Virus record (IMG/VR): IMGVR_UViG_3300047318_000426
Span: 1-57,494 of that record
Reading direction: 5' to 3' (one strand)
Source: a virus
DNA length: 57,494 nucleotides
Position numbers and translations under genes: made by a program
Part shown: one piece after another, positions 37,631-49,616 of the stretch
Layout: every line of letters starts with the position of its first letter
How positions within the stretch are numbered: position 1 is the stretch's first letter
The notes under the pieces: generated by a model
Database searches by the model: none
What the model was told of the DNA's origin: nothing
What the model saw: the letters and a program-made list of their open reading frames with translations, nothing else

Positions 37631-38104
37631 ATGCACCGCAGAACAGTCACGCTCACAGCTCTAGCTGCCCTGGCGGTAGTCGTCGGGGCAGGCGCCCCTA
37701 CCGCCGTGGCTACCGTGCCGGACGAAACGCACGTAACGAACGTCCGCTTCGGGGCGCACTCGACCTTTGACCGGATGGTGGTGGACATGTCCGGTCCGCT
37801 GCCGAACGTCAAGGTGTCCAAGCCCTGGGCGTTGCACACCGATGGCGAGGGGGCGCCGGTCAACCTGAAGGGCAAGGGCAACATCTTGACCGTGCTCTCT
37901 CCGGCGGACGCGCACGGCACGCCACCCTACGTCGGCCCGAAGAGGATCGCCGACCTACACATGAAGTACCTTCACGGATTCCAGCTCCTCGGCGACTTTG
38001 AGGGCTACGTATCCCTGGGGCTCACTACCGATGTGAGCAACCCGAAGTATCGGGTGATCAAGCTTACCAAGCCGAGCCGCGTCATCATCGACGTCTGGAA
38101 GTGA
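37631..38104 (+). CDS. Secreted AMIN-like domain protein
   Basis: 157 residues from ATG 37631 with GAGGAG upstream. Residues 1-~30 are a signal peptide (LTALAALAVVVGAGAPTAVA). The mature part fits the AMIN-like domain of actinobacterial secreted proteins: VRFGAHSTFDRMVVDMSG, FQLLGDFEGYVSLGLTTD, KPSRVIIDVWK. AMIN domains bind cell-wall or envelope structures, so the phage may export it to change the host surface. An in-frame ATG at 37535 would hide the signal. Confidence 0.8.
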   Translation: MHRRTVTLTALAALAVVVGAGAPTAVATVPDETHVTNVRFGAHSTFDRMVVDMSGPLPNVKVSKPWALHTDGEGAPVNLKGKGNILTVLSPADAHGTPPYVGPKRIADLHMKYLHGFQLLGDFEGYVSLGLTTDVSNPKYRVIKLTKPSRVIIDVWK

Positions 38105-38157
38105 GAGATGTGAGGGGGTTGTCAGCAACGGCGGCCCCTTCGCCTATAGGAGGAACC

Positions 38158-38313
38158 ATGCAGCGAATCCAGAAGCATAAAGCCATACGCACCCACGTGC
38201 GACCCCCGCCGGAGGACTCCGGTACCACCGTACGCGGACGACCCTCAGGGCGCCTCAGGCGTGCCCGCAAGGCGTCTCGCGACGCCGAATCCTTCCTCGC
38301 CCGCACCGGGTGA
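38158..38313 (+). CDS. Small highly basic protein
   Basis: 51 residues, ATG 38158 after ATAGGAGG. About a third of residues are Arg, Lys or His (RGRPSGRLRRARKASRDAES), suggesting nucleic-acid binding. Unknown family. Confidence 0.65.
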   Translation: MQRIQKHKAIRTHVRPPPEDSGTTVRGRPSGRLRRARKASRDAESFLARTG

Positions 38314-38342
38314 GCCGACAAGAGCCCGAAAGGATGGACGGC

Positions 38343-38654
38343 ATGAAGCTCAGACAGAACCCGGAAAAAGTTGCAGCACGCAAAGCCGAGCGAGAGGCCA
38401 AGCGGGGCGTCGCCCCCAAGGGTCTCACCTATGACGCGGACCGGTTCAGCGTCCAGGTGAGCGAGAACCTTACTGGCGTTGGTGCACGGAGTGCCCGCGA
38501 GCCGCTCGGTCTCAAGTACCGCGTCATCGTCACCGACGACACCACGCGCGTCACCCAACATGTGGGCTACGGCATAAGTTACCGGATGGCCGAGGCCGAG
38601 GGTCGGAAGTACATCGACAAGCTGTGCTCCGGCAAAAAGCGGCTCAGGATCTGA
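38343..38654 (+). CDS. Basic early protein
   Basis: 103 residues from ATG 38343 (AAGGA nine bases upstream; GTG 38310 and ATG 38334 are in-frame alternatives). A Lys/Arg-rich N-terminal helix is followed by a small beta-alpha domain: YRVIVTDDTTRVTQHVGYGI then RMAEAEGRKYIDKL. Unknown function. Confidence 0.65.
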   Translation: MKLRQNPEKVAARKAEREAKRGVAPKGLTYDADRFSVQVSENLTGVGARSAREPLGLKYRVIVTDDTTRVTQHVGYGISYRMAEAEGRKYIDKLCSGKKRLRI

Positions 38655-38717
38655 CGGCAGCGCGGCTGGGCTTGGCACGACTTGGCAGGGAGCCATCACC
38701 AACACAGGGGAACGCGT

Positions 38718-39176
38718 ATGGAAAAGTTCAGCTTGTATCAGCTCATCGTCGGCGTTCTCGACGAGACAACCCTGGTCGAACCCGATGATGTTGCCGCCGA
38801 GGTGGCCCGGCGCATCCCGCCAGAAGATGCCAAGGAGGCATTCCGTCAGGCCCTCCGAGCGTACGCGTCCAAGATCATGGCGTTGACTCGATCCGGTCGG
38901 GAGGTGCCCGTCAGGAGCGCTCGATCGGCCAAAGTCTCGGGCATCCGCGAGGCGTGGCTGAATCAGCGCTGGAGAGGTGACGACGGCCAGTGGAAGCTGA
39001 TGCGGCATTTCACCTACGCCGACTGCATTGCGGCGGCCGAGTACCGCAAAGAGGAGGCCGCCAAGAACCTCGCCATCGCTGGACGCCTGGAACGCCTCGC
39101 CGACACCCTCAAGGAATACGACGCCCAGGAGGTAGGGCAGCTTCCCGCACGCATCCGCGACCAGTTCGGCGACTGA
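38718..39176 (+). CDS. Conserved helical early protein
   Basis: 152 residues, ATG 38718. It has DETTLVEPDDVAAEVARRIP, FRQALRAYASKIMA, then a basic stretch REVPVRSARSAKVS and a long coiled C-terminus. The RSARSAKVSGIREAW segment resembles small DNA- or RNA-binding proteins of actinophages. It ends six bases before the first of the 30-nt-loop hairpins. Confidence 0.65.
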   Translation: MEKFSLYQLIVGVLDETTLVEPDDVAAEVARRIPPEDAKEAFRQALRAYASKIMALTRSGREVPVRSARSAKVSGIREAWLNQRWRGDDGQWKLMRHFTYADCIAAAEYRKEEAAKNLAIAGRLERLADTLKEYDAQEVGQLPARIRDQFGD

Positions 39177-39182
39177 AGACCA

Positions 39183-39410
39183 CCCGGCGGGCCAATAGAC
39201 CACCGGCGCCCACTGAGCGCGCGCCCGCCGGGTCCCAACTCCCTTATCGGCCAGCCTTCTCTCGACGCCCCGGCACCCCGCGCCGGTAGGGGCTCAACTT
39301 CCGCCAACGGCCGCCTTCGCTGCGACACCCATCGCCTAGCCGCCGTTGGCGGAACCCCATCTCGGTGGGCCACGGTCTCCCCGGCACCCACGAACCCAGC
39401 GCCCGCCGGG
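39183..39410 (+). repeat. Four tandem hairpins with 30-nt loops (upstream cluster)
   Basis: Hairpins at 39183-39232, 39241-39292, 39299-39354 and 39361-39410 have stems of 10, 11, 13 and 10 bp and loops of exactly 30 nt each (loop starts 39193, 39252, 39312, 39371; period 59-60). Stem sequences differ but pairing is kept, e.g. CCCGGCGGGC, TTCCGCCAACGGC. Every loop begins and ends with C and has CGRCRCC at loop positions 12-18. Linkers are CAACT-like. The last hairpin ends 26 nt before the IS110-like gene. Confidence 0.88.
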
Positions 39411-39436
39411 CCCCAACTCCCCGTAAAGGAAACGCC

Positions 39437-40135
39437 ATGTTTGATGTGATGTTGGCACTCCTTGCCGACATGCTGGACGACCTGGAGAAGACCCGTATCA
39501 GCAACGAGAACCGCTTGCGTCAGCTCACCCGTACCGAGGTCGACTCCGATGGTGGGGAGCGCGGGTTCGGGCTCTCCGAAGACCACCCGGATGTTGCCCG
39601 TACCGCAGCTCTGGTGGAGGGTCTGCGCAAGTTGGAGCATGATGCCACGCTAAACCTGCAGCGTGCCATGCGTAAGCACCCCCTGGGCCCCTGGGTCAAG
39701 GCTCAGAAGGGTGTTGGCGAAAAGCAAGCCGCTCGACTACTGGCCAGCGTCGGCGACCCCTATTGGCAGAGCGCCGATGATCGCCCCCGTCTGGTATCCG
39801 AGCTCTGGTCGTACTGCGGCCACGGCGGACCCTCCCGGCGACGCCGCGGGCAGGTCGTCAACTGGTCGCCTGCGGCGAAGATGCGCATCTATCTCATCGC
39901 CGAATCCTGCATGAAGACCGGGGGGCCGTACCGCGAGGTATACGACAAACGGAAAGCTGCCACCGAGAACCGTCTGCACAACGCCGACTGTGTCCGCTGC
40001 GGCCCCTCCGGCCACCCGGCGCTGGTCGGCTCTCCCTGGTCGGCTGGGCATCGCCACGCGGACGCCCTACGGATCACCGGCAAGGAGATCTTGCGGGGCT
40101 TTTGGCGCGAGGCGAAGCGACTACACGAACAGTAA
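39437..40135 (+). CDS. IS110-family C-terminal (Transposase_20)-like HhH protein
   Basis: 232 residues, ATG 39437 after AAAGGAAACGCC. The N-terminus is a long helix pair. Residues 88-108 are a helix-hairpin-helix (KGVGEKQAARLLASVGDP). Then come SYCGHGGPS (124-133), RRRRGQ, WSPAAKMRIYLIAESC (143-158) and YREVYDKRK. A CVRC-H insert (185-205) precedes HADALRITGKEIL. This order matches the C-terminal domain of IS110/IS116 recombinases, including a Ser at 133 in the usual catalytic area. The RuvC-like DEDD N-domain is not seen. Hairpin clusters flank it on both sides. Confidence 0.7.
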   Translation: MFDVMLALLADMLDDLEKTRISNENRLRQLTRTEVDSDGGERGFGLSEDHPDVARTAALVEGLRKLEHDATLNLQRAMRKHPLGPWVKAQKGVGEKQAARLLASVGDPYWQSADDRPRLVSELWSYCGHGGPSRRRRGQVVNWSPAAKMRIYLIAESCMKTGGPYREVYDKRKAATENRLHNADCVRCGPSGHPALVGSPWSAGHRHADALRITGKEILRGFWREAKRLHEQ

Positions 40136-40143
40136 CCGGATCT

Positions 40144-40253
40144 CCCGGCGGGCCATAGCATGGACGACACCTACGAATACCTCGCCCGCCGGGGCTCAAC
40201 TCCCCTACCGGCCATTCAGCAGACGGCGCCCAGTGATGCGTCGCCGGTAGGGG
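40144..40253 (+). repeat. Two more hairpins with 30-nt loops (downstream cluster)
   Basis: Hairpin 40144-40193 has the same 10-bp stem as the first upstream one; hairpin 40202-40253 has an 11-bp stem CCCCTACCGGC/GCCGGTAGGGG, a compensated form of the second upstream one. Loops 40154-40183 and 40213-40242 are 30 nt, start and end with C, and carry CGACACC and CGGCGCC at loop positions 12-18. The first begins nine bases after the IS110-like stop. Confidence 0.88.
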
Positions 40254-40281
40254 CCTTTCGCCGATACATCGGAGAAGCCGT

Positions 40282-40881
40282 ATGACTCTCAAGATGACCA
40301 AAACCGCAGGTCCGCAACCGCTCGACTTTTTGTCCGCCCTCCGCGTCGGGGCTCAGTGGGACACATCCTCCGGCGGCAAGAAGGGCTTCCTAGGGAAGCT
40401 CAACCGCATGAAGGGGGTTGACCTGGACCTGATCGCCGTCGCCGTCGACGAAGACAACCGCCCCGTCCGCCTGGCCGGGCTGGACAACTCCGATCCCTTC
40501 CGGAACGGAGCGCTCTATCACTCGGGTGACAACACCACGGGCAAGGGTGGGGGCGATGATGAAGCGATCGACTTCACCTTCGAGAAGGTGCCGGAGTACA
40601 TCAGTCAGGTGGTCTTCATCGTGGCTGCCTACAAGGCGGGGCAGACGTTCGCTGCGGCCCGCAATGTCAGCTTCAACGTGTATGACGGAACCAGCAACGC
40701 TCTGCTGGGCGAGTTCATGCCTGACCTGCTGGGCGGAGGGAACGCCTGCGCCGTCGCCAGAGCCCGCCGGACTCCCTCCGGCTGGACGCACGAGATCATC
40801 AACCGACTGGGCAGCGTCACCGCTGGTAGCGAGATCAGCATCCTGCGGTTCGCTGGTCAGCACACCGACGAGGAGGAGTAG
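40282..40881 (+). CDS. TerD-family protein
   Basis: 199 residues, ATG 40282 after CGGAGAAG. It shows the TerD fold signature: VDLDLIAVAVDEDNRPV, the calcium-site stretch HSGDNTTGKGGGDDEAI, VPEYISQVVFIVAAYKAGQT, VSFNVYDGTSNALLGEF and a terminal WTHEIINRLG. TerD proteins of bacteria act in tellurite, stress and phage-resistance complexes at the membrane. In a phage it may counter or mimic host Ter defence; the role is inferred only. Confidence 0.88.
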   Translation: MTLKMTKTAGPQPLDFLSALRVGAQWDTSSGGKKGFLGKLNRMKGVDLDLIAVAVDEDNRPVRLAGLDNSDPFRNGALYHSGDNTTGKGGGDDEAIDFTFEKVPEYISQVVFIVAAYKAGQTFAAARNVSFNVYDGTSNALLGEFMPDLLGGGNACAVARARRTPSGWTHEIINRLGSVTAGSEISILRFAGQHTDEEE

Positions 40882-40883
40882 GC

Positions 40884-41204
40884 GTGAGCGACGCGGTTCC
40901 CGTCACACGGGAGATCGTTGACCTATTCGAGGAGTACGACACCGCGCGTTCGGCGGTGAGTCGGTGGCAGGCGCACGAGAGGGCCCTCAAGCAGCAGATC
41001 CTCGAAGCCCTCGGCTATGCGGAGGGTGACCAGAGGCCGGCGCCGGTCACGGCCACCACGCCAACGGGGCGTCCGCTGTTTGAGGTGCGGGTGTCGTATC
41101 GCAAGGGACTGGATCTGAGGCATCTTCAGGATCGACATCCGGAGGCTTATGCGGCATGCGAGAAGACCTCACCGGTGAGGACGATCAAGCGTCTCGAAGT
41201 CTAG
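40884..41204 (+). CDS. Conserved protein associated with recombination nucleases
   Basis: 106 residues, GTG 40884 after GAGGAGGAG. An N-terminal coiled coil (IVDLFEEYDTARSAVSRWQA) and the C-terminal LDLRHLQDRHPEAYAACEKT with SPVRTIKRLEV are typical of small proteins encoded beside RecB/YqaJ/Cas4-type exonucleases. It may be an accessory subunit to the nuclease at 42364. Confidence 0.65.
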   Translation: MSDAVPVTREIVDLFEEYDTARSAVSRWQAHERALKQQILEALGYAEGDQRPAPVTATTPTGRPLFEVRVSYRKGLDLRHLQDRHPEAYAACEKTSPVRTIKRLEV

Positions 41205-41212
41205 GGGGAGCA

Positions 41213-41791
41213 GTGCGATGTGATCACGCGTGGTACTCGGCGGTATCCTTCCCGTCACCCGTCATGACGCGTGACCACTGCGTCAAGTGCGGGTTTGTAG
41301 CCAACTCATACAACGGGCGCATCTACGAGCGGGCATTGCCGCTTGAGTTGTTCATGGGCAAGACGAAGCGGGACCCCGCCTCCGGCTGCCTGTTGTGGAC
41401 CGCGAGCACGAACGACAAGGGATATCCGATCTTTCACGCGAGCGACGCCCAGGGATGTCGATTCACCATGGGTGCGCACCGCTGGATCTTTCGCGAAAAG
41501 TTCGGATACCTGCCTGAAGTCGTCATGCATCGCTGTGACACGCCGCTATGTGTCGACTGGGAGCGGTGCTTGATCCCTGGCACCCATGCGGACAACATGA
41601 CAGACATGATTCGGAAAGGTCGAGACCGGCACGACCGGTCCGGATTTCGCCTCACCCCCTCGCAGGTCCGCGAAATCCGCTCCCGGCGAGAACATGGGGA
41701 GACGTGCAAAGCCCTCGCCCGCGAGTTCGGGATATCCGTCAATGGCGTCCGGGACTGCGCCAACGGTCGCACGTATGCGAACATCTCGTAA
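41213..41791 (+). CDS. HNH endonuclease (HNH_3 type)
   Basis: 192 residues from GTG 41213 (ATG 41264 possible). CDHAW and CVKCGF form an N-terminal zinc ribbon. The HNH core is GCLLWTASTNDKGYP, AHRWIFREKFG, VVMHRCDTPLCVDWERCLIP and THADNMTDMIRKGR. The C-terminus LTPSQVREIRSRREHGETCK is a helix-turn-helix DNA-binding module as in SPO1-type homing enzymes. Likely mobile, inserted among recombination genes. Confidence 0.88.
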   Translation: MRCDHAWYSAVSFPSPVMTRDHCVKCGFVANSYNGRIYERALPLELFMGKTKRDPASGCLLWTASTNDKGYPIFHASDAQGCRFTMGAHRWIFREKFGYLPEVVMHRCDTPLCVDWERCLIPGTHADNMTDMIRKGRDRHDRSGFRLTPSQVREIRSRREHGETCKALAREFGISVNGVRDCANGRTYANIS

Positions 41792-44700: not shown

Positions 44701-44743
44701 CACACAAAGCCCGCCACCCTCCCGCTGTGGCGGGCTTTGTGTG
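44701..44743. terminator. Strong terminator
   Basis: CACACAAAGCCCGCCAC (44701-44717) pairs perfectly over 17 bp with 44727-44743 around a 9-nt loop. T-rich on the right arm (TTTGTGTG). It divides the recombination block from the WhiB/primase block. Confidence 0.88.
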
Positions 44744-44764
44744 TTCGGAGAGGAAGTGAGTGCC

Positions 44765-45259
44765 ATGGTGAGGTCGTGGCAGACGCGGGCCGCATGTATC
44801 GGCATCCCTCTGGCCGACCAGCAGGTGGCGACCAACGGGGCGCTGACGCTCGACGAGGCGCGCCCCTTCATCGCCACGTACTGCCGACAGTGCCCCGTCC
44901 GTGAAGCCTGTCGGAGCTGGGCGATGGGGGAGCGCTCATTCTCCGGCATCGCGGGGGGTGTGCTGTTCCCGGACGCCGGAGCGGGGCGCAGGCGACGCAT
45001 GCCCATAGCCGTCCCCCTGGCCGAGGAGACCGGCTATCTGCTTGCCACCGAGCGGCGTAAGCATCCGCAGGTGCGCCGACGTCATCTCGTCAACAAGGTG
45101 GTGCGCGTCCGAGTTGCGGCTCCGTGGCGTGCCCTGTGCGGCACCGTATGCGATGCGAATCGCAGCGCCATGCACGAACGGGAGGCCCTGGCGGCATCGG
45201 CATGCCTGGTGTGTGCGGAGATCAAGCAGGGTGCCTATCACGTAGAGGCGATGCGATGA
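44765..45259 (+). CDS. WhiB-family regulator with extra C-terminal zinc ribbon
   Basis: 164 residues from ATG 44765 (GTG 44756 also possible, GGAGAGG upstream). Cys11, Cys40, Cys43 and Cys49 with RAACIG, YCRQCPVREACRSWA and GIAGGVLF give the Fe-S WhiB signature. A basic stretch (RRRR) follows. The C-terminal half has CGTVC and CLVC, a second metal site like that of 47401-47652. WhiB proteins bind sigma factors; phage copies can repress host whiB genes. The ATGA overlap links it to the primase. Confidence 0.88.
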   Translation: MVRSWQTRAACIGIPLADQQVATNGALTLDEARPFIATYCRQCPVREACRSWAMGERSFSGIAGGVLFPDAGAGRRRRMPIAVPLAEETGYLLATERRKHPQVRRRHLVNKVVRVRVAAPWRALCGTVCDANRSAMHEREALAASACLVCAEIKQGAYHVEAMR

Positions 45260-48673: not shown

Positions 48674-48882
48674 GGGAAGCCGAACCACAGGTCATCCCTG
48701 CGGCGAGCGACAACGGGCCGATGACCGCCCACTGGGCGTGTCCCGTCTGCGAGCCCGTCGGACAGCTCGGCATGAAGGCCGTCTGCGGCGAGAAGCTCCT
48801 CGGCCTCCCCGCCCTCACCGGGCAGGGCTGCTCGCGCTGCTCCGCCCTGGTCGACTCCCACCTCAGAGAGCACGGACTGTAG
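48670..48882 (+). CDS. Zinc-ribbon small protein
   Basis: 70 residues, ATG 48670. CPVCEPVG and, ~30 residues on, CSRCSALVDSH give a likely zinc site. Its stop overlaps the next GTG by one base. Confidence 0.62.
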   Translation: MREAEPQVIPAASDNGPMTAHWACPVCEPVGQLGMKAVCGEKLLGLPALTGQGCSRCSALVDSHLREHGL

Positions 48883-49616
48883 TGACCGAGTGGGCGGTGT
48901 GCCGGAACGGCTTGCATGATGTGACCGATCCGGCCAACGTCTACATCCGGCCGGACAACGGAACCCGCTGGTGCAAGCCGTGCAAGCGGATCGTGGACCG
49001 TGATCACAAACGCATGATGCGGCACCTCACGGATGATCAGAAGGCCCGCAGGCTATACCTGGAATGGAAGGGCCCGCGGCGCCGCACGCAGAGCGCCATC
49101 AAGCAACACCGGGTGCGCTACGGGCTCCATCCCTACGCCTCTGGGCATCGGCTGGAGTACGCCATCACCGCAGCCGAGGTGCGCACCCTGCAGAGCTACG
49201 CGGACGGCCTCACCTGTCCGGAGATCGCAGCGCGCGAGCAGTTGGTGCCGGGCGCCATCGATCGGCGCAGCCGGAACATCCGCGCTAAGTACGGGGTGGC
49301 GGATATGGTGGCAGCCGTCGCCCAGGGGCTGAAGCGGGGGGCCATCACGCCGGATAAGGCAACGGTGCGACATCTCAGCCCCAAGGCGCTGCGGAAGAAC
49401 GTCGTCCGCACCTACGTCCATCAGCTCGTCGCGGTCGTCCAGGGGCGGGCGCGACGCGGCCAGCAGAGCAACGAGCTGAACGCGATCCTGTGGCATCTCC
49501 AAGCTCGGAACGAGGCACATGCCGTCTCGATCCTCTGGGCGGCCGGAATTATCACCGCCCGGCACGTCCCGCAAACGCGCAATCGATACCAGCGAAGAAC
49601 GGAGCAGAGCCGATGA
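48882..49616 (+). CDS. LuxR-type HTH protein with N-terminal zinc ribbon
   Basis: 244 residues, GTG 48882. The N-terminus has CRNGLHDV and CKPCKR (metal ribbon as in HNH or DNA-binding proteins). The middle, ITAAEVRTLQSYADGLTCPE then IAAREQ...NIRAKYGVADMVAAV, is a GerE/LuxR-like helix-turn-helix. The C-terminus is helical and basic. Likely a transcription regulator of phage or host genes. Confidence 0.7.
   Translation: MTEWAVCRNGLHDVTDPANVYIRPDNGTRWCKPCKRIVDRDHKRMMRHLTDDQKARRLYLEWKGPRRRTQSAIKQHRVRYGLHPYASGHRLEYAITAAEVRTLQSYADGLTCPEIAAREQLVPGAIDRRSRNIRAKYGVADMVAAVAQGLKRGAITPDKATVRHLSPKALRKNVVRTYVHQLVAVVQGRARRGQQSNELNAILWHLQARNEAHAVSILWAAGIITARHVPQTRNRYQRRTEQSR

What the first reader, a model, noticed from the sequence alone, without database searches (positions are those of the whole stretch)
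39183..40253. Six covarying hairpins with exactly 30-nt loops flank an IS110-like gene
Four hairpins precede and two follow the gene at 39437-40135. Stems are 10-13 bp with three different sequence types, but every loop is exactly 30 nt, begins and ends with C, and carries CGRCRCC at loop positions 12-18. Compensating and G-U changes keep pairing while the sequence changes, which argues for selection on structure. The 59-60 nt period is not a multiple of three, so it is not a peptide repeat. IS110-family recombinases are known to use structured 'bridge' RNAs encoded next to the recombinase. The protein here resembles the IS110 C-terminal domain only. A phage RNA-protein pair of a new kind is a hypothesis worth testing.
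Basis: partly seen in the sequence, partly recalled or inferred. Interest (0 to 1): 0.92.

Follow-up and report, generated by a model that had tools for sequence, protein, structure and literature searches.

The report
Phage TIGR-TasA stem-loop guide RNA array
The six hairpins are dual-spacer guide RNA units of a TIGR-Tas system, an RNA-guided DNA-binding system described in 2025, carried here by an actinobacterial phage; the system is known, but its relatives show guides that change very fast and guides nested inside the effector gene, which makes the open question of its natural role testable.

Summary
In detail: six hairpins, 10-13 bp stems, loops of exactly 30 nt, four before and two after a 232-aa gene, all with CGRCRCC at loop positions 12-18. 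Stem covariation beats every control.
It is an RNA-protein pair related to IS110, but not a new kind: it is a TIGR-TasA system of the stem-loop-array type (PMC12045711). The protein passes NCBIfam's TIGR-Tas model (230 vs cutoff 100 bits). Its AlphaFold model matches TasR and TasH before IS621 and has no nuclease domain. Each loop reads box C (CCA) - 9-nt spacer A - box D (CG) - RCRC - CCA - 9-nt spacer B - CG.
A covariance model built only from the window found about 200 units in related loci, beside tas genes and with one exception on the tas strand.
New-looking points lie in relatives: spacers are hypervariable between near-identical mycobacteriophages (diversity 0.46-0.64, against 0.02 in tas), and in 26 of 69 loci units sit in frame inside the tas ORF. 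No natural target was found. Function is most likely RNA-guided, nuclease-free DNA binding.

The parts
39182..39233 (+). TIGR unit 1: 11-bp stem; spacer A 39195-39203 ATAGACCAC; loop repeat plus box C 39204-39212; spacer B 39213-39221 CTGAGCGCG
39241..39292 (+). TIGR unit 2: 11-bp stem; spacer A 39254-39262 GCCTTCTCT; loop repeat 39263-39271; spacer B 39272-39280 GGCACCCCG
39299..39354 (+). TIGR unit 3: 13-bp stem; spacer A 39314-39322 CCTTCGCTG; loop repeat 39323-39331; spacer B 39332-39340 TCGCCTAGC
39361..39410 (+). TIGR unit 4: 10-bp stem; spacer A 39373-39381 CGGTCTCCC; loop repeat 39382-39390; spacer B 39391-39399 CGAACCCAG
39437..40135 (+). tasA: 232-aa solo Nop-domain Tas protein, no nuclease domain
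   Evidence: NCBIfam NF052498 230.5 bits vs cutoff 100; profile vs 9MTY TasR 3.6e-28 and TasH 8.4e-16; AlphaFold pLDDT 92.9; Foldseek TasR/TasH top
40143..40194 (+). TIGR unit 5: 11-bp stem; spacer A 40156-40164 TAGCATGGA; loop repeat 40165-40173; spacer B 40174-40182 CGAATACCT
40202..40253 (+). TIGR unit 6: 11-bp stem; spacer A 40215-40223 TTCAGCAGA; loop repeat 40224-40232; spacer B 40233-40241 GTGATGCGT

Best explanation
This is a TIGR-TasA locus with a stem-loop array in an actinobacterial tailed phage. The two sub-arrays, on the same strand as tasA, would be transcribed and cut in the linkers into single stem-loop tigRNAs. Each loop presents two 9-nt spacers, each between a box C (CCA) and a box D (CG), to a symmetric TasA dimer. 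Spacer A pairs with one strand and spacer B with the other strand of an adjacent DNA site reading 5'-A-(0-2 nt)-revcomp(B)-3', and the complex unwinds and bends that site. With no nuclease domain, TasA probably acts by binding: blocking transcription, replication or recombination of a rival element, or marking a site for another protein. Shown here: the unit anatomy, the Tas identity of the protein, the absence of a nuclease domain, and conservation of boxes and stems with turnover of spacers in relatives. Inferred from the published TIGR systems: expression, processing, dimerisation and dual-strand targeting. Speculative: the biological role.
For: NCBIfam TIGR-Tas model 230.5 bits vs cutoff 100. 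Single-sequence phmmer to PDB finds TasR 9MTY 5e-10 and TasH 6e-5; the family profile gives 3.6e-28 and 8.4e-16. AlphaFold pLDDT 92.9, pTM 0.84; Foldseek: TasR E 8e-9 TM 0.71, TasH TM about 0.7, then IS621 E 3e-4. Pseudo-symmetric box C / 9-nt / box D anatomy in all six units, as PMC12045711 describes for stem-loop arrays (two 8-12 nt spacers flanked by boxes C and D, palindromic flanks, no nuclease in the TasA example). A covariance model from the window alone finds 203 units at E<=0.01 in other loci with Tas homologues (some loci near-duplicates), all but one on the tas strand, and in whole phage genomes only around tas apart from a weak E 0.048 match. Without any stem requirement, 258 of 329 box-pattern matches near tas have stems of at least 7 bp against 1 of 25 on the other strand. 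Spacer diversity 0.46-0.64 against 0-0.05 in stems and boxes and 0.023 in tas between cluster A mycobacteriophages: the pattern expected of guides.
Against: No transcript, processing or binding data for this locus. No target DNA found for any spacer. No terminator or promoter recognised, though such scans are weak in actinophages. Box D here is CG rather than the UG of TasR arrays.
Confidence: 0.93

Rival explanations
1. Same RNP architecture, but the dual spacers guide the protein to RNA (a snoRNA-like or antisense regulator) rather than to DNA.
For: The Nop domain and boxes C/D are shared with box C/D snoRNPs; TasA has no nuclease; no DNA targets were found.
Against: The closest solved relatives, TasR and TasH, bind and cut DNA (PMC12045711; PDB titles); no methyltransferase or other RNA-modifying partner recognised beside tas in the window.
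Confidence: 0.07
2. The hairpins are bridge-RNA-like and the protein is a truncated or domesticated IS110 recombinase used for site-specific recombination.
For: Foldseek finds IS621 and ISCro4 after the Tas proteins; PHROG 4285 calls the family 'transposase'.
Against: No catalytic domain; Tas proteins match better by sequence and by fold; the array has up to 13 recognised variable dual-spacer units per locus in relatives, not one two-loop bridge RNA.
Confidence: 0.02
3. The hairpins are cis-acting elements (terminators, mRNA stabilisers, operators) or single-stranded DNA recombination sites with no guide function.
For: GC-rich stems in intergenic space.
Against: No T-tracts; loop boxes and two 9-nt variable segments conserved in length across hundreds of units; association with Tas genes and their strand; variability confined to the spacers.
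Confidence: 0.02

Closest known systems
TIGR-TasA with stem-loop array, Peromyscus leucopus gut contig (PMC12045711, Fig. 7)
   Same: Solo Nop-domain protein without nuclease; separate sub-arrays of stem-loops; loops with two short spacers flanked by boxes C and D
   Different: Actinophage; six units in two sub-arrays flanking tasA; the linker between spacers is a fixed-length loop repeat (CGRCRC+CCA), a form the paper calls intermediate to dual-repeat arrays; box D CG
TIGR-TasR / TIGR-TasH dual-repeat systems (PDB 9MTY; 21KL, 9VZX, 9W02-9W04)
   Same: Nop fold, 9-nt spacers (16 nt in all for SpTasH), box C CCA, compact loop repeat
   Different: No RuvC or HNH domain; variable palindromic stems instead of a constant edge repeat
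IS110/IS621 recombinase and bridge RNA (PDB 8WT6, 8WT9)
   Same: Shared RNA-binding (Nop-like) domain
   Different: No catalytic part, no bridge RNA, no element ends
Box C/D snoRNP (Nop5, Nop56/58)
   Same: Distant Nop fold; C/D-boxed dual guides
   Different: No fibrillarin or L7Ae partner recognised; weak structural score

Membership tests
TIGR-Tas | Tas protein with a Nop domain of the TIGR family | tested here: met
   NF052498 230.5 bits vs cutoff 100; TasR and TasH top by profile and by fold
[quoted passage not shown]
   All six units: box C-N9-CG twice, with CTA, CCC or CCG for one CCA in three units; 361 of 375 spacer A and 366 of 375 spacer B are 9 nt in the family
TIGR-Tas, stem-loop subtype | Variable palindromic flanks instead of a constant edge repeat | tested here: met
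   Three stem types with compensatory change
TIGR-Tas, TasA class | Solo Nop domain, no HNH or RuvC | tested here: met
   232 aa; no nuclease domain hit in Pfam, PHROGs or NCBIfam other than the TIGR-Tas model itself, which aligns over residues 6-226
TIGR-Tas | Array processed into unit-length tigRNAs bound by Tas | not testable with these tools
   needs RNA sequencing
TIGR-Tas | Dual-strand DNA targeting by spacers A and B | not testable with these tools
   binding cannot be tested here; no natural target found in 1.1 Mb of Tas-phage sequence or in limited scans of phage collections
IS110 transposon | Recombinase with a RuvC-like DEDD domain and catalytic serine | tested here: not met
   Only the Nop-like part aligns; no Pfam IS110 domain hit at E<=1
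Rfam RNA families | Match to a curated RNA family | tested here: not met
   No credible match in 38000-41500

The most novel reading that the evidence does not exclude
In actinobacterial phages TIGR-TasA is a fast-reprogrammed, nuclease-free guide system used in competition between phages: closely related temperate phages keep boxes and stems but replace whole spacer pairs, and in many lineages extra guide units are stored in frame inside the effector's own coding sequence, so that one stretch of DNA is both guide RNA and protein loop.
Probability: 0.3. Interest if true: 0.82.

Novelty: new member of a known kind. Interest (0 to 1): 0.55.

Why it matters
Natural targets, spacer origin and the role of nuclease-free TasA are stated open questions in the TIGR paper, which blames metagenomic origin for the difficulty. 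Relatives of this locus sit in culturable phages of Mycobacterium smegmatis and Gordonia, with hypervariable spacers at fixed unit positions, so who is targeted and how spacers change can be tested in laboratory strains. Guide units nested in the effector ORF do not appear in the main text of that paper and would be a new form of genome economy.

Tried and rejected
Rfam: nothing. Self-targets of the six spacer pairs in the window: best 3 mismatches of 18, same as wrong-orientation controls. Targets of 314 spacer pairs in 1.1 Mb of Tas-phage sequence: 4 hits at 1 mismatch and 93 at 2, controls 0-4 and 96-148, so no enrichment. Gapless 18-nt targets against 50,697 phage records: the positive control was found and no target was (19 targets; a 1-2 nt gap would be missed by word size 11). 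Exact pattern scans of IMG/VR with gaps 0-2: 0-5 hits each, about the number expected by chance, mostly in contigs of low GC. One gapless hit, L118, falls in a phage lysozyme-like gene and is judged chance. One pattern in 148 genomes of one mycobacterial genus: none. Single-sequence AlphaFold was poor (pLDDT 54) and was replaced by the alignment-based model. An apparent codon-like variation of some cluster A spacer pairs was noticed and is unproven. The VIPR system (PMC13142463) was considered and set aside: its guide code (alternating GGY/NN) is different.

Full report
Check of the observation. The six hairpins exist as described. Stems are 10-13 bp without interruption, loops are exactly 30 nt, and all loops carry CGRCRCC at positions 12-18. 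Loop-to-loop spacing is 59-60 nt within each sub-array. Stem pairs covary: five of ten pairs change on both sides, all cells pair, and neither shuffles nor slid controls approach this. Individual folding is significant for four of six units.

Anatomy. Read with the innermost stem base, each loop is C-CA, nine variable bases, CG-RCRC-CCA, nine variable bases, C-G; units 2, 3 and 5 carry a one-base variant of one box C. Box C (CCA) therefore precedes and box D (CG) follows each nine-base segment, and the middle CG-RCRC-CCA can close a four-base loop with one G-C pair. This is the pseudo-symmetric plan of a tigRNA: edge, spacer A, loop repeat, spacer B (PMC12045711). The same paper describes a second array type in which the edge repeat is replaced by variable palindromes, with either variable or constant linkers between spacers. 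The window belongs to that type with a constant linker.

The protein. The 232-aa product passes the NCBIfam model 'TIGR-Tas system RNA-guided endonuclease' with 230.5 bits against a cutoff of 100, is PHROG 4285 'transposase' and has no significant Pfam match. A single-sequence search of the PDB finds TasR (9MTY) and TasH; a 26-sequence profile finds them at 3.6e-28 and 8.4e-16 and nothing else. The AlphaFold model with that alignment has mean pLDDT 92.9, and Foldseek ranks TasR and TasH first (E 8e-9 to 4e-5, TM about 0.7), IS621 and ISCro4 next, and Nop5 weakly. No nuclease domain is present, so it is TasA; the word endonuclease in the family name does not apply.

Relatives. 84 phage records hold a homologue over at least 80% of the query, 76 of them mycobacteriophages, and alignment-based scans gave 53 IMG/VR and 5 bacterial-genome loci. 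My unit finder recovered 375 units in 64 of 69 loci, spacers being 9 nt in 96-98%. The finder requires a stem, so two independent tests were made. The loop pattern alone, with no stem required, matched 329 times near tas on the sense strand, 258 with stems of at least 7 bp; on the antisense strand 1 of 25. A covariance model built only from the six window hairpins found 203 units in other loci at E<=0.01, one of them on the other strand (a few loci are near-duplicates), and in whole genomes of eight phages the hits clustered around tas, one weak match (E 0.048) apart.

Two features of relatives seem new. First, between 15 nearly identical cluster A mycobacteriophage loci the linkers, stems and boxes are almost invariant while spacers differ nearly as much as unrelated sequence: diversity 0.46-0.64 in spacers of units 1 and 2, 0-0.05 in stems and boxes, 0.023 in tas. 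Second, in 26 of 69 loci one to four units lie in frame inside the tas ORF, always at the same loop between the WAYCG and RRGxxNW motifs, as an insertion of roughly 22-83 residues; the covariance model finds these units too. The window's own loop there is short and carries none, although its nearest relatives L013 and L014 carry two each; on a tree without the insert columns the state changes at least 11 times, with many weak forks. A text search of the main text of PMC12045711 did not show either feature; its supplements could not be read.

Targets. The published rule gives a target 5'-A-(0-2)-revcomp(B)-3'; the order was derived here from the stated 3' overhangs. No enrichment over controls appeared in the window, in sibling phages, or in the limited searches of phage and mycobacterial collections. 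This argues against self-targeting and leaves the role open.

Setting. The window is an IMG/VR virus record with portal, protease, capsid and tape-measure genes; its portal is about 45% identical to those of Rhodococcus, Gordonia and Mycobacterium phages. tasA lies between a gene of unknown function and a TerD-domain gene, near exonuclease and primase genes.

Verdict. A clear new member of a known kind. Expression, processing, dimerisation and DNA binding rest on the published homologues; the competitive role is a hypothesis.

Noticed in passing
L002, L007, L008, L013, L014, L023, L037-L040, L042-L047, L050, L051, L055, L056, L062-L064, L066-L068 (inside the tas match): TIGR units nested in frame inside the tas coding sequence at a single loop, 1-4 units per gene; gained or lost repeatedly on the tree.
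   Followed up: partly
L003, L010-L012, L026-L036, about 360 nt upstream of tas: Five stem-loop units with near-invariant stems but hypervariable spacer pairs between almost identical mycobacteriophages; alleles of different units appear reshuffled between phages.
   Followed up: partly
L003 2632-2892 (Mycobacterium phage Chanagan gp65): Annotated hypothetical protein overlies the TIGR array and is probably a spurious gene call.
   Followed up: no
window 40282-40881: TerD-domain protein (Pfam PF02342, E 6e-15; PHROG 5698) directly downstream of the array.
   Followed up: no
window 44741-45259 and 48738-49616: WhiB-like regulator and a protein with weak HNH and sigma-factor matches in the same region.
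   Followed up: no
L029 and L032 unit 5: Predicted targets AAGTATGCGATGCGAATT and AAGTACGCGCTGCGAATT differ as codons of one gene might; no target was found.
   Followed up: partly
L049 3379-3498, L025 3379-3459: Long tas loop insertions (40 and 27 aa) without recognised units, perhaps decayed guide units.
   Followed up: no
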